The position numbers and the translations under genes were made by a program. The notes under the pieces are model-generated. The model had not been told where the DNA came from. It saw only the letters and a list, made by a program, of their open reading frames with translations, and made no database searches. 34,026 bases of DNA from Desulfonatronum sp. (GTDB lineage: Bacteria > Desulfobacterota > Desulfovibrionia > Desulfovibrionales > Desulfonatronaceae), in contig DSBL01000022.1 in assembly GCA_011049455.1 (NCBI GenBank), forward strand, positions 1 to 34,026. The letters are read 5' to 3'. Positions 28,659-34,026 of the stretch are shown piece by piece (the first letter of the stretch is position 1; every line of letters starts with the position of its first letter).

Positions 28659-31046
28659 GTGACGCAACCAACCATCCCGCTACCCTACGGCGCAAGCCTG
28701 GATCAGACCAGATTGCCGACAAAGCCGCTACGGGCCGTAGGCATTGACCTGGGCACCACAAACTGCACGGTTGCCGAGATTGTCTATGATCCGGCCAGAA
28801 GCGGGCCGATCAAGGCGGTGTGCCGACCCATCCGACAGACCGGCATTGGCGCACGCGGCGAAGTCATGGTTCCATCCCTTGTCGCCCTGCATGCCGGAAA
28901 GGTGCATATCGGTCAGGGCGCGCGTGACCTGCCCCTTCTTGCTCCGTCATTCGCACCCCGTCTTTATCGGAACTATTTCCGGGACACCAAGAACTACATG
29001 GGGCTGCGCCGCGTGTTTCACCAGGCCCCGCAAGGGTTTCAAAACGCCCGGGACATCGCCGCGCACCTGCTTCGTTTTCTGCGTGACGACATCTGCAGCA
29101 GCGGACAACCGGACAGCGTGGTGATCAGCATTCCGGCCTCGTTCCAGCTTGCCCAGCGCCGGGATGCGGTGTCTGCCGGGGAGCAGGCCGGGTTTGGCAG
29201 GACGCGCCTTCTGGACGAACCCATGGCCGCTTTTCTGGATTTCGCCGCGCACAACGGCCAGCAGTGCTTGGGGAGGCCGGGTCAAATCCGGACTTTGCTG
29301 GTCTTCGACTTTGGCGGCGGCACCTGCGACACGGCCCTGTACCGCGTGACCGTGTCCGAAGCCGATTCCCCGTTGCAGGTCGCTCCCTTGGCGGTGTCCC
29401 GCTATCATCGTCTTGGCGGCGCGGACCTGGACCTGGCCATAGTCCATGAAGTTCTTTTGCCCGAACTGTGCCGCCAGAACGATGTACACCCACTGGACAT
29501 TTCCTACCGCGACAAAAGGGATATTCTGGTTCCTGCCCTGCTCAACGCGGCCGAGCGTCTGCGCATCAGCCTCTGCGAAGAGCAGGCCGGTCTGCTGGAG
29601 CAAGGCATCGAATGCACTCTCTCGGACGGCAGGGTGGTCCTGCTGCGCAATCCCGGCCTGAGCCAAGCGCAATTTGATAAAATCCTCGCCCCGTTCATTG
29701 ATCAGGACGTACTCTGGCCCCTGGAGAGCGAACATCGCACCACATGTTCCCTGTTCGCCCCGCTGGACGATGTTTTGCGCCGGGCCGGAATGTCGGCGAA
29801 CAACGTGGACGGCGTTCTCCTGGCCGGAGGCTGCTGCCGCATGCCCCAAATCCGGAAGGCAGTGGCCGGGCATTTCCCCAGGGCCAAACTTTTCGCCCCG
29901 CGAGACGCGCTGTCCATGCAGCTTTCCGTGGCCCGGGGCGCGGCCTGGGAGGCTTTTTTTCACGCCATGTTCGGCAGGGGCGTGATTGCTCCGGCGGCCG
30001 GGGACAGCGTTCACCTGAACACGACATCCGGCCCCCTGGAGCTGGTCCCTCGCGGGGCAGCCCTGCCTTTTCCCGGCAACGGCCAGGATATGATCGAGCT
30101 GAATTGTCTTGCCGTGCCCGACAAAGGGGCGTCAACGGAGATGGAATTGCGCCTGGACATCGAGGATTCGGACGCCCGGCTCCTGAACCGGAGAACCTGG
30201 ACCCTCAAGGGAGCGCCGCACCAGGGCGAGCCCCTGATCATGTCCTATCGCATGGACGACAACCAGGACTTGCACATGCAGGTCCGGCTGGCCCGCGACT
30301 TGGACCAGGCCTTTGCCTGCACCATCGAGAACCCCCTGGTGCACGTGGTCAACCCGGACGCCAAACGTGAACGGATTCAGGAACTGGAAGAACTCCAACA
30401 CGGCGGAACCCTGCGCGGCGATGCGCTGCGCAATGCCATGGCCGAACTGGCTGGTCTATACGTGGACCTGGGCCACAAGGAACAGGCCCTGGGGCTGTAC
30501 AAGGAGATCATTGCCCGGTTTGGTCCGAGCGTATACCTGCTGAACAGAATCGGCCTGATCTATCGGGACATGCGCGAGTACCATCGGGCCGAGAAGCATT
30601 TCCGGCTGGCCCGTGAGCAGTTCCCGGACAGTGTGCCCTTGTTCAACCTGGCCCTGACCTTGAAGGATCAGGGCCGCACGGATGAGGCGCTGAAGACGGT
30701 CCGGGAAGCCCTGAACGATAAACCGCAAGCAAGCGCACCGTATCACGTGCTCTGCGCCCAGCTGGCGGCCAAGACCGGAGATCGCGAGGCTGAACAGGAA
30801 CACATGGACCAAGCGGCCCGATCCATTCCTCCTCTGGAAAGGATGGATGACTGGGAGATGGACTGGTGCGAGTCCCTGGCCACCATGCGCGGCGACCAAG
30901 GGCTGTTGGATAAGTTGCGGCAGGAAAAGCAGAATCGCAAGGACAGGCAGACAAGACAGGCCCCAGGACTGCTCCCGGACTGGATCGTGAAGAACACGAG
31001 TGAAGGCCGGGATCATAGCGGGGAAATGATGCTTTTGCCTGCTTGA
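28659..31046 (+). CDS. Hsp70-family ATPase fused to TPR repeats
   Basis: A 795-residue protein with an actin-like Hsp70 ATPase domain (about 25-410). The phosphate 1 motif is GIDLGTTNC (29-36), phosphate 2 is VFDFGGGTCDTALY (about 215-228) and the adenosine motif LLAGGCCRMPQI is at about 387. A beta-rich region (about 430-570; ELVPRGAALPFPGN) corresponds to the DnaK substrate-binding core, but the helical lid is replaced by at least four TPR-like repeats (about 590-725; LYVDLGHKEQALGLYKEI, RIGLIYRDMREYHRAEKHF, NLALTLKDQGRTDEALK). The start is GTG 28659 with AGCGAGGAG upstream. No DnaJ or GrpE gene is adjacent. It may be a specialised chaperone or a regulator whose client is bound by TPRs. Confidence 0.88.
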   Translation: MTQPTIPLPYGASLDQTRLPTKPLRAVGIDLGTTNCTVAEIVYDPARSGPIKAVCRPIRQTGIGARGEVMVPSLVALHAGKVHIGQGARDLPLLAPSFAPRLYRNYFRDTKNYMGLRRVFHQAPQGFQNARDIAAHLLRFLRDDICSSGQPDSVVISIPASFQLAQRRDAVSAGEQAGFGRTRLLDEPMAAFLDFAAHNGQQCLGRPGQIRTLLVFDFGGGTCDTALYRVTVSEADSPLQVAPLAVSRYHRLGGADLDLAIVHEVLLPELCRQNDVHPLDISYRDKRDILVPALLNAAERLRISLCEEQAGLLEQGIECTLSDGRVVLLRNPGLSQAQFDKILAPFIDQDVLWPLESEHRTTCSLFAPLDDVLRRAGMSANNVDGVLLAGGCCRMPQIRKAVAGHFPRAKLFAPRDALSMQLSVARGAAWEAFFHAMFGRGVIAPAAGDSVHLNTTSGPLELVPRGAALPFPGNGQDMIELNCLAVPDKGASTEMELRLDIEDSDARLLNRRTWTLKGAPHQGEPLIMSYRMDDNQDLHMQVRLARDLDQAFACTIENPLVHVVNPDAKRERIQELEELQHGGTLRGDALRNAMAELAGLYVDLGHKEQALGLYKEIIARFGPSVYLLNRIGLIYRDMREYHRAEKHFRLAREQFPDSVPLFNLALTLKDQGRTDEALKTVREALNDKPQASAPYHVLCAQLAAKTGDREAEQEHMDQAARSIPPLERMDDWEMDWCESLATMRGDQGLLDKLRQEKQNRKDRQTRQAPGLLPDWIVKNTSEGRDHSGEMMLLPA

Positions 31047-31132: not shown

Positions 31133-31672
31133 ATGACGGATTTGGTACCAATGGAGAGCATCACCGGCAAGATTCTGGTGCTTCGCGGCATGAAGGTCAT
31201 GTTGGATCGGGATTTGGCGGAATTGTACGGGGTTCCGACAAAAGCCTCGAAACAGTCTGTACGCAGAAATTTCGAGCGGTTTCCAGATGATTTTATGTTT
31301 GAACTGTCCCAGGAAGAGTTGGCCAATTGGAGGTCACAATTTGTGACCTCCAAATCAGACAAGATGGGCTTGCGGTATCCGCCCTTGGCCTTCACTGAAC
31401 AAAGTGTGGCCATGCTGTCCACGGTCCTGAACAGCAAGCGGGCCATCCATGTCAACATCCAGATCATGCGGGCATTCACCAAGCTGCGCCAGATGCTGGC
31501 CTCCCACGAGGATCTGCGACGCAAGATCGAGGACATGGAATCGAAATACGACGAGCAATTCCAGGTCGTGTTCGAGGCCATCCGTCAGCTTTTGGCCACC
31601 GAGGAGAAGCCGGAGCGGAAGATCGGGTTTGTGAGGGAAGATGCTCAAGAGTTTGGAGGCTTGGAGGCGTAG
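31133..31672 (+). CDS. ORF6N domain-containing protein
   Basis: A 179-residue protein with the N-terminal ORF6N domain found in phage antirepressors: SITGKILVLRGMKVMLDRDL and AELYGVPTKASKQSVRRN, FPDDFMFELSQEEL, RYPPLAFTEQSVAMLSTVLNS and the helical AIHVNIQIMRAFTKLRQML, each seen here as shorter motifs. The C-terminal third (about 125-165) is a coiled coil, EDLRRKIEDMESKYDEQF. ORF6N proteins bind DNA in phages and are scattered in bacterial accessory regions, so this may be a phage remnant or a domesticated regulator. ATG 31133 has AAGGAAGGGGCGTC upstream. It ends 188 bases before the cas9 start on the same strand. No other phage genes are visible. Confidence 0.9.
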   Translation: MTDLVPMESITGKILVLRGMKVMLDRDLAELYGVPTKASKQSVRRNFERFPDDFMFELSQEELANWRSQFVTSKSDKMGLRYPPLAFTEQSVAMLSTVLNSKRAIHVNIQIMRAFTKLRQMLASHEDLRRKIEDMESKYDEQFQVVFEAIRQLLATEEKPERKIGFVREDAQEFGGLEA

Positions 31673-31699: not shown

Positions 31700-31742
31700 G
31701 CTTCGGGCACCAAAAAAGGAAGGCGTGCCGAAGCCCGCCTTC
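31700..31742. repeat. Overlapping alternative hairpins upstream of cas9
   Basis: GCTTCGGGCAC (31700-31710) pairs with GTGCCGAAGC (31725-31734) with one bulged G. GAAGGCG (31719-31725) pairs perfectly with CGCCTTC (31736-31742). The two stems share bases, so only one can form at once. A further CTCTT-GAAA-AAGAG hairpin lies at 31678-31691. The strand in use and the function are unknown; a leader element, a transcript end for the ORF6N gene, or part of a small RNA are possible. Confidence 0.5.
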
Positions 31743-31788
31743 TCATCTGGTGGAATCATCCTTGTTAACGGAATGACCCCATTTCCCG

Positions 31789-31816
31789 TTGCAAAACTGC
31801 CAAATCCGCCTAAAAA
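31789..31816 (+). promoter_or_regulatory. Candidate promoter for cas9
   Basis: TTGCAA (31789-31794) and TAAAAA (31811-31816) are separated by 16 bases. Transcription would start near 31823, giving a leader of about 37 bases with TAGGAGGAACGGT just before the cas9 ATG (31860). Confidence 0.4.
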
Positions 31817-31859
31817 AAGCAAGCTTAAAAATGTGCGGTTTTCATCTAGGAGGAACGGT

Positions 31860-33914
31860 ATGCACTATCGCCTTGGCCTGGACATCGGAGCCAATTCCAT
31901 CGGCTGGTGTGTTTTGTCGCTGGGTGAGGACAATACGCCATCCGCAATTGTCCGCATGGGCGTAAGGATTTTTTCCGACGGACGAAATAATAACAGCAGC
32001 CCTGCGACCACGCGCCGTTTGAAACGGCAGATGCGCAGGATGCGAGACCGCTATGTGTTGCGCCGCGACCGGCTCATGCAATGTCTGATTCGTCACGGGC
32101 TGATGCCGCCTGATGAAGCCGAACGAAAGGCATTGCAGGATATTGATCCCTATACGTTGCGGGCCGAAGGGCTCCACAGGCAGTTGCCCTTGCACCATAT
32201 GGGACGCGCCGTTTTCCACTTGAACCAGCGTCGAGGCTTCAAAAGCAATCGCAAGGCTGATCGCGACAGCAAAGAGGTCGGCCCCATCAAGAGCGGCGTG
32301 GAAAAACTCAGACAGATTATGGCCGAGGACGGCACGCCAACCCTGGGTTCTTTCCTGCACCAGCGCCGCATGGAAGGCTTGACCGTGCGCAGCCGCTTGC
32401 AGGAGCAGAAGAGTAAATCGAGCTATGATTTCTATCCCGAACGGGCCTTGCTGGAAGAGGAGTTTGATCTGCTTTGGCAGACCCAGGCCGGATTTAACCC
32501 CCAACTGACTCCGGCCATGCGGGAGGATATTGAGAAGGAGTTGTTTTTTCAGCGGCCTCTCAAACCCGTGGAGCCGGGCAAATGCACCTTTTTGCCCCAT
32601 GAACCCCGAGCGCCCTGGGCCTTGCCCCTGACCCAGCGCTTCCGGATCCTCCAGGAATTGAGCAACCTGATGATCGTGGGATCGGACTACAGCCAGCGTC
32701 CTTTGACCCTTGAAGAACGGAATGCGCTCCTGGCCAAGCTTCTGGGTCAAAAAACGGTCAGTTTCGATGCCATGCGCAAACTACTCCGCCTTCCGGAGGG
32801 CAGTCGCTTCAACCTGGAGAGCGACAAGCGCAAGGAACTCAAAGGCGATGAAACAGCCACTCTGCTGAGCAAGAAGGAACTTTTCGGCAAGACTTGGCAC
32901 CACTTGTCCTTTGAGCGTCAGAACGAGGTGGTGCAGTGGTTGTTGGATTTGGATGATCCCGGCACAGGGGCCGCGAAAACAGACGTTGTCAAGCGTCTCG
33001 TGACGGATTTTGACTTGGAGCGGGAGCGGGCTGAACGTATCGCGACAGTCTCATTGCCTGATCGTCACGCCCGGCTGGGCCGCACCGCCATGACCGCCAT
33101 TGTTCGAAACATGGAGGCGGAATGCCTGCCCAATGACGTTGCAGAGGCTAGAGCCGGATTCCATCATTCCGACCTGCGCACCGGCGAGGTGTTCGAAACA
33201 TTGCCCTACTACGGCATCCCGCTCAATCGGCACACCATGTCCGTAAGCGTGGGTTCGGAAGAGGAGGTGCGTTATGGGCGTATTGCCAATCCCACGGTGC
33301 ATATCGGACTTAACCAACTCCGCAAGCTGATCAATGCCATGATCGAGGAATGGGGACATCCGGCGCAGATTGTCCTGGAACTGGCTCGGGAACTGAAGCA
33401 AAGCCGCAAGAAACGGCGTGAGATCGAAAAGAGGCAGGCTGAGGAACAGGAGGCCAACGAACGTCGTGCCGATGAACTGGTTCGGCTGGGTTTGAAACGA
33501 AATGCCGAAAACTTACTCAAGTTCCGGCTGTGGGAGGAGTTGAACAAAGACCCAAGTCGTCGGCGTTGTGTCTACACCGGAGAGGTCATCAGCCTCCAGC
33601 GACTGTTTTCCCCGGAAATTGAAATTGAGCATATCCTGCCCTTATCGCGGACTCTGGACAACAGCGCGGCCAACAAGACCGTGAGTTTGCGCCGGGCTAA
33701 TCGATTCAAGGAACGTCAGAGCCCCTGGGAAGCTTTCGGTCATTCTCCGAATGGCTATGACTGGGAGGGCATCCTGGAACGGGTGAAGGGTTTACCTGGG
33801 AATAAGCAGTGGCGTTTCAGCGAACAGGCCATGTCTCGTTTCGAGGGTGAAGGTGACTTTTTGGACCGGCATCTCTCCGACACGCAGTATCTGGCTTCAG
33901 CAGCTAGTGCCTAA
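31860..33914 (+). CDS. cas9: Cas9 (type II-C-like), C-terminally truncated by an IS
   Basis: A 684-residue part of the CRISPR RNA-guided nuclease Cas9; complete type II-C proteins are about 1000-1100 residues. RuvC-I is YRLGLDIGANSIGWCVL with catalytic D8. The arginine-rich bridge helix is TRRLKRQMRRMRDRYVLRRD (51-70). A recognition lobe follows (about 80-460). RuvC-II is IVLELARELKQS with E507. The HNH domain runs from about 565 (RRCVYTGEVIS) through IEIEHILPLSRTLDN with H591, and N605 and N614 match the usual Asn positions. The protein ends soon after FLDRHLSDTQYLA, just where RuvC-III would start, so the HHAxDA motif and the PAM-interacting domain are missing. The break coincides with an IS630-type end. 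ATG 31860 has TAGGAGGAACGGT. Not functional as a full Cas9. Confidence 0.93.
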   Translation: MHYRLGLDIGANSIGWCVLSLGEDNTPSAIVRMGVRIFSDGRNNNSSPATTRRLKRQMRRMRDRYVLRRDRLMQCLIRHGLMPPDEAERKALQDIDPYTLRAEGLHRQLPLHHMGRAVFHLNQRRGFKSNRKADRDSKEVGPIKSGVEKLRQIMAEDGTPTLGSFLHQRRMEGLTVRSRLQEQKSKSSYDFYPERALLEEEFDLLWQTQAGFNPQLTPAMREDIEKELFFQRPLKPVEPGKCTFLPHEPRAPWALPLTQRFRILQELSNLMIVGSDYSQRPLTLEERNALLAKLLGQKTVSFDAMRKLLRLPEGSRFNLESDKRKELKGDETATLLSKKELFGKTWHHLSFERQNEVVQWLLDLDDPGTGAAKTDVVKRLVTDFDLERERAERIATVSLPDRHARLGRTAMTAIVRNMEAECLPNDVAEARAGFHHSDLRTGEVFETLPYYGIPLNRHTMSVSVGSEEEVRYGRIANPTVHIGLNQLRKLINAMIEEWGHPAQIVLELARELKQSRKKRREIEKRQAEEQEANERRADELVRLGLKRNAENLLKFRLWEELNKDPSRRRCVYTGEVISLQRLFSPEIEIEHILPLSRTLDNSAANKTVSLRRANRFKERQSPWEAFGHSPNGYDWEGILERVKGLPGNKQWRFSEQAMSRFEGEGDFLDRHLSDTQYLASAASA

Positions 33915-34026
33915 TTGCATAAATTTGAAATAGTATTTCTGAGCTGGCTTCCCTTGACTTCACGTTTCCTCCATACAAATGGCTTGGCATGTGGAGTATA
34001 TGCTTCAACAAATTCCTGGATTGCTA
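33907..34026. mobile_element. End of an IS630-type insertion sequence
   Basis: The sequence changes from cas9 coding DNA to AT-richer DNA that encodes a transposase C-terminus on the minus strand. The junction probably lies at CTAG (33904-33907), a known preferred target of IS630 elements with TA duplication. An alternative TA is at 33888. The rest of the element is beyond the window, so its inverted repeat cannot be compared. Confidence 0.7.
33911..34026 (-). CDS. IS630-family transposase, C-terminal end (partial)
   Basis: The last 37 codons before the TAG stop (33913-33911) are visible; the gene continues beyond the window edge. The peptide includes AIQEFVEAYTPHAKPFVWRK and ends LRNTISNLCN. 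The AKPFVW motif close to the C-terminus is typical of IS630/Tc1-type DDE transposases. The stop codon lies only a few bases from the presumed end of the element, as seen in compact IS630 copies. Its orientation is opposite to cas9, so it does not create a fusion product; cas9 instead gains seven foreign or altered codons and a stop. Confidence 0.75.
   Translation of the reverse strand, partial: AIQEFVEAYTPHAKPFVWRKREVKGSQLRNTISNLCN

What the first reader, a model, noticed from the sequence alone, without database searches (positions are those of the whole stretch)
31860..34026. A type II-C-like cas9 cut off before RuvC-III by an IS630-type insertion
Seen: D8, E507, H591, N605 and N614 of Cas9 are all in place, but the frame stops at 33914 exactly where an opposite-strand transposase end begins, so RuvC-III and the PAM-interacting domain are missing. 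Known: Cas9 without these cannot license or cut both strands. Inference: the CRISPR system was recently silenced, because the remaining frame is free of stops and frameshifts and keeps its promoter and ribosome-binding site. A truncated protein of 684 residues could still be made, with an intact HNH domain and recognition lobe.
Basis: partly seen in the sequence, partly recalled or inferred. Interest (0 to 1): 0.72.

Follow-up and report, generated by a model that had tools for sequence, protein, structure and literature searches.

The report
Jumping gene splits a Cas9 gene
A small type II-C CRISPR system in this bacterium has lost its Cas9 cutter because a jumping gene (IS630 family) landed in the middle of it; both halves of Cas9 and the rest of the system are intact, and the cell still has a second, complete CRISPR system, so this is a clean but ordinary gene knock-out.

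Summary
The window is a whole contig (C21) that ends 120 bp inside an IS630-type element. The missing part lies on contig C138 of the same assembly: the other IS end, then cas9 codons 683-1017 with HHAVDA, cas1, cas2 and a 4-repeat/3-spacer array. Joining the flanks with one copy of the TA duplication gives an uninterrupted 1017-aa Cas9 that aligns across the junction with intact relatives. A second TA-flanked copy of the IS sits elsewhere in the genome. A predicted tracrRNA gene and promoters inside the repeats resemble Neisseria-type II-C loci. The truncated 684-aa protein lacks RuvC-III and the PAM-interacting domain and should be inactive.

Corrections: no sigma-70-like promoter was found upstream of cas9. 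Only the II-C effector is silenced, because a complete type I-E system with at least 22 spacers is present. "Recent" is inferred.

Unexpected extra: in another family of the same order, a distant Cas9 (31% identity) is split by an unrelated IS with a 7-bp duplication, at the equivalent of residue 687 against 682 here. Two independent insertions five residues apart suggest a hotspot, but n = 2.

The parts
31860..33904 (+). 5' part of cas9: RuvC-I, bridge helix/REC lobe, RuvC-II, HNH (682 codons of the uninterrupted gene; codon 682 is completed by the TA of the target)
   Evidence: TIGR01865 485 bits, profile 1-686/1070; catalytic residues checked; 47-53% identity to the five nearest intact order-level relatives
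33905..33906 (.). TA target site duplication (left copy), within an original CTAG
   Evidence: single TA restores the open frame with C138; also TA at both flanks of the second copy
33907..34026 (-). one end of an IS630-family element (terminal inverted repeat GTGCCTAATTGCA and the C-terminal 37 codons of its transposase), cut by the contig end; supplies the TAA stop (33912-33914) of the truncated cas9
   Evidence: homologous full-length element in a relative is IS630 by NF033545, 229 bits
31848..31853 (+). AGGAGG ribosome-binding site of cas9
   Evidence: direct reading
31712..31792 (-). predicted tracrRNA gene, divergent from cas9: anti-repeat 31774-31787 (14 bp perfectly complementary to the repeat), then a stem with a U-run terminator-like end
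   Evidence: repeat:anti-repeat duplex -37.3 kcal/mol; fold z = -2.8; expression not shown
31133..31672 (+). ORF6N-domain gene upstream of the locus; flanking gene, not part of the CRISPR system
   Evidence: PF10543, 104 bits

Best explanation
This is a type II-C CRISPR-Cas locus (tracrRNA, cas9, cas1, cas2, array) whose cas9 was split by insertion of an IS630-family element into a CTAG site, with duplication of TA. The element lies antisense to cas9. Shown: the two halves, both IS ends, the TA, and the intact cas1, cas2, array and anti-repeat. Inferred: the IS supplies a stop, so only a 684-aa fragment can be made from the normal start. That fragment has no RuvC-III (so RuvC is inactive) and no PAM-interacting domain (so no target search), so RNA-guided interference by this system is lost. 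cas1-cas2, which follow cas9 in one apparent operon, are probably cut off from the upstream promoter as well. The cell keeps a complete type I-E system, so losing the small, 3-spacer II-C system is probably near neutral.
For: Flank join...GCAGC + TA + GAGAATACC... gives 1017 aa without a stop. The junction (TQYLASAAREYLTCVCD) aligns without gaps to intact relatives. The two halves match profile positions 1-686 and 687-1068 of the same Cas9 model. IS ends share TAGTGCCTAATTGCA. A second IS copy (C122/C118) is also TA-flanked. A homologous full-length element in a same-order genome is IS630 with similar ends. cas1 TIGR03639 (type II) and cas2 TIGR01573 pass their cut-offs. The array has 36-bp repeats at 66-bp spacing, each carrying TTGACC-16-TACAAT. 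The type I-E system on C74 has cas3, cse1, cas7, cas1 and 23 repeats.
Against: No contig spans C21-IS-C138, and the IS body is absent from the assembly, so physical adjacency is inferred from frame, homology and TA. IS-mediated rearrangement since insertion cannot be excluded. A 340-aa frame for the C-terminal half opens at a TTG inside the IS end, so some C-terminal fragment could be translated. The fraction of the population carrying the insertion is unknown.
Confidence: 0.94

Rival explanations
1. Natural split Cas9: the N-terminal 684-aa and C-terminal ~340-aa polypeptides are both made and reassemble into an active nuclease.
For: Both halves are intact open frames; the C-terminal half has an in-frame TTG inside the IS end. 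Artificial split Cas9s are known to work (general knowledge).
Against: No ribosome-binding site was seen before that TTG (direct reading) and no promoter-like site in the IS end. The break falls in the stretch that opens RuvC-III, and intact relatives are single chains.
Confidence: 0.02
2. Assembly artefact: C21 was joined by error to an IS end, and the real cas9 is uninterrupted.
For: The window ends at the element, and the element's body is not in the assembly.
Against: Both cas9 halves independently end at the same point against opposite IS ends with the TA shared, and the assembly holds no uninterrupted cas9. The same pattern marks a second site.
Confidence: 0.03
3. The 684-aa protein is a functional short Cas9 relative (for example a target-free regulator) conserved as such.
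For: REC lobe and HNH are intact.
Against: Its last codons and stop come from the IS. The five nearest order-level relatives encode full-length proteins of 1065-1082 aa. The C-terminal half is still present and undecayed next to the other IS end.
Confidence: 0.01

Closest known systems
Type II-C CRISPR-Cas (Neisseria/Campylobacter type)
   Same: cas9-cas1-cas2 only, ~1017-aa Cas9, 36-bp repeat starting GTTG and ending CTACAAT, promoter inside each repeat, array convergent with cas2, predicted tracrRNA next to cas9
   Different: cas9 is split by an IS; only 3 spacers
IS630-family insertion sequences (IS630/Tc1/mariner)
   Same: TA duplication in a CTAG target, short inverted ends, transposase C-terminus 69% identical to an IS630 transposase of a relative
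   Different: the body of this copy could not be read
F. psychrophilum CN46 type II-C locus with IS982 and IS256 insertions (PMC10309648)
   Same: IS insertions in a type II-C locus; truncated Cas9s also reported in that species
   Different: there the insertions lie between tracrRNA and cas9 and in the array, and the cas genes are still transcribed; here cas9 itself is split
Disrupted cas9 genes of Mollicutes (PMC6882279)
   Same: cas9 inactivated while the rest of the locus remains
   Different: the described M. arthritidis case is a frameshift with a self-targeting spacer; no self-target was found here

Membership tests
Type II-C CRISPR-Cas | Cas9 with RuvC and HNH domains | tested here: met
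   both halves match TIGR01865 above its cut-off; met only for the joined gene, not for the present protein
Type II-C CRISPR-Cas | cas1 of type II and cas2 downstream; no csn2, no cas4 | tested here: met
   TIGR03639 cas1 and TIGR01573 cas2; no further cas gene between cas9 and the array on C138
Type II-C CRISPR-Cas | tracrRNA with anti-repeat | tested here: met
   sequence prediction only: duplex -37.3 kcal/mol
Type II-C CRISPR-Cas | repeat-spacer array | tested here: met
   4 repeats, 3 spacers of 30 nt
Type II-C CRISPR-Cas | RNA-guided interference | not testable with these tools
   expected lost; needs an assay
IS630 family | TA target duplication | tested here: met
   both sites
IS630 family | short terminal inverted repeats | tested here: met
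   TAGTGCCTAATTGCA shared by both ends
IS630 family | DDE transposase of the IS630 type | tested here: inconclusive
   only the two termini of the protein can be read; C-terminus 69% identical to a full IS630 transposase in a relative

The most novel reading that the evidence does not exclude
The stretch that opens RuvC-III (residues about 680-690) is a recurrent landing site for unrelated insertion sequences in Cas9 genes: two independent cases in one order, by elements with 2-bp and 7-bp duplications, fall five residues apart and both at CTAG-containing targets. Either the site is a target hotspot, or loss of exactly RuvC-III plus the PAM-interacting domain is a favoured way to silence Cas9.
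Probability: 0.1. Interest if true: 0.45.

Novelty: new member of a known kind. Interest (0 to 1): 0.3.

Why it matters
It is a clean natural knock-out of Cas9 with every other part of the locus still intact, in a cell that keeps a second CRISPR system. It is useful as a well-resolved example of how CRISPR systems are lost. The near-identical position of a second, independent insertion makes a simple survey worthwhile.

Tried and rejected
Self-targeting as the cause: the three spacers have no other match in the genome with up to 3 mismatches, no exact 19-20-nt seed match in IMG/VR and no convincing phage match. The IS body was sought by its DDE_3 domain in the assembly and was not found. Plasmid searches for the IS end (DNA; peptide) gave nothing. 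No Cas9 relative was found in the other 7 genomes held for the genus, which is also the whole family sample, so an uninterrupted allele from a close relative could not be examined. Type I-E spacers do not match the cas9 locus or the IS (one 13-bp chance-level match elsewhere in the window). The idea that clustering of contig ends in cas9 marks a hotspot was weakened: other contig ends fall at about residues 800 and 890.

Full report
CHECK OF THE OBSERVATION. The window is the complete contig C21 of a 2.87-Mb draft genome in 164 contigs. From ATG 31860, preceded by AGGAGG at 31848-31853, a frame runs to TAA 33912-33914: 684 residues ending DTQYLASAASA*. The protein matches cas_Csn1 (TIGR01865) with 485 bits over profile positions 1-686 of 1070, and Pfam HNH_4 and Cas9_a. 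The minus strand of 33914-34024 encodes the C-terminal 37 residues of a transposase. The last 123 bases of the window recur without a mismatch at the end of contig C122, next to unrelated genes.

THE MISSING HALF. Two further contig ends, C118 and C138, start at the same terminal sequence (TAGTGCCTAATTGCA) and then diverge from it, as the opposite end of an IS would. C138 (4542 bp) carries, on its minus strand and directly against that IS end, a 340-aa frame that matches Cas9 profile positions 687-1068 and contains HHAVDA. It is followed by a type II cas1 (TIGR03639, 241 bits), cas2 (TIGR01573) and an array of four 36-bp repeats at 66-bp spacing. Joining C21 to C138 with a single TA gives a 1017-aa Cas9 without a stop, with H719 and D723 in the HHAVDA motif. 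The joined protein aligns through the junction with full-length relatives from the same order (up to 53% identity in the N-terminal part). The insertion site was a CTAG; besides it the gene has only one other CTAG. The other IS copy (C122/C118) is also flanked by TA within an original CTAG.

THE ELEMENT. The body of the IS is not in the assembly, presumably collapsed into a short contig that was discarded (inference). The C-terminal peptide is 69% identical to that of a 357-aa transposase in a same-order genome. That protein passes the IS630 model (NF033545, 229 bits), and its element has similar ends (TAATGCCTAATTGCAAAA). Family assignment therefore rests on TA duplication, inverted ends, the readable protein termini and a full-length relative.

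REST OF THE LOCUS. Upstream of cas9, on the minus strand, 31774-31787 is perfectly complementary to 14 bases of the repeat; the repeat:anti-repeat duplex is predicted at -37.3 kcal/mol, followed by a stem and U-run, and the region folds better than shuffles (z = -2.8). This is the likely tracrRNA. Each repeat contains TTGACC-16-TACAAT pointing into the next spacer, and a terminator-like hairpin follows the last repeat: the Neisseria-like arrangement of type II-C, in which crRNAs start inside the array. The three spacers match nothing else in the genome, no viral contig by exact 19-20-nt seed and no phage convincingly.

HOST CONTEXT. The genome has a second, type I-E system on C74: cas3, cse1, further Cascade genes including cas7, cas1e, a cas2-like frame, and 23 repeats up to the contig end. 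So the cell is not left without CRISPR defence. None of the other 7 genomes held for the genus has this Cas9, while 24 of 296 other genomes of the order have a relative; the system is patchy and probably acquired horizontally (inference).

MECHANISM. Shown: insertion, TA duplication, intact halves and intact neighbours. Inferred from established Cas9 biology: without RuvC-III (the H and D of HHAVDA) the RuvC site is incomplete, and without the C-terminal domain there is no PAM reading, so the fragment cannot license or cut targets. The IS also separates cas1-cas2 from the promoter of the operon. Recency is suggested by the absence of any other lesion in either half and by the identity of the IS ends at the two sites over 122-123 bp, but no date can be given. 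Translation of the C-terminal half from the TTG inside the IS end is possible on paper but lacks a visible ribosome-binding site; I give a working natural split Cas9 about 2%.

A SECOND CASE. In genome G073, of another family of the same order, a Cas9 only 31% identical ends at a contig edge 142 bp inside an element found at more than 15 places of that genome. Its 3' half with cas1 lies at the end of contig C37. Joining the flanks with one copy of the 7-bp duplication CCTAGGC restores a 1067-codon frame. The break corresponds to residue 687 of the window's Cas9, against 682 here. Given one site, a second within five residues has a chance of about 1% if breaks are uniform along the gene. With two cases and an unplanned comparison this is suggestive only. 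Other contig ends inside cas9 genes (G278, SZUA-147, G149, G209) show no IS bases and are spread from about residue 672 to about 890. In G151 the cas9 is a pseudogene with frameshifts and stops.

COMPARISON WITH WHAT IS KNOWN. IS insertions in type II-C loci (Flavobacterium psychrophilum CN46, PMC10309648) and broken cas9 genes (Mollicutes, PMC6882279) have been described. The present case is a new member of a known kind: well resolved, but not surprising. Verdict: confirmed, ordinary, interest 0.3, with a cheap survey suggested by the coincidence of positions.

Noticed in passing
L126 and L127 (G073 contigs C37 and C38): A distant Cas9 in another family of the order is split by an unrelated, multi-copy IS with a 7-bp duplication (CCTAGGC) five residues from the site in the window; flanks rejoin to a 1067-codon frame.
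   Followed up: yes
L015 (G000 contig C74): Complete type I-E CRISPR-Cas system with 23 repeats in the same genome.
   Followed up: partly
L009:5606-5728 and L010:5799-5921: Second IS630 copy, TA-flanked, inserted just upstream of an ArsR-family regulator gene; the flanking contigs carry an ArsP-type permease and a molybdopterin oxidoreductase.
   Followed up: partly
L038 (G151 contig C2): cas9 relative decayed by stops and frameshifts, i.e. a third broken cas9 in the order.
   Followed up: no
window 28659-31046: Hsp70-like protein fused to C-terminal TPR repeats, close to the CRISPR locus.
   Followed up: no
window 31133-31672: ORF6N-domain gene (a domain usual in phage antirepressors) directly upstream of the tracrRNA/cas9 region.
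   Followed up: no
L007 end and L037 end: Contigs of SZUA-147 and G278 end inside cas9 at the equivalents of residues about 672 and 689, near the IS site, but without IS bases.
   Followed up: partly
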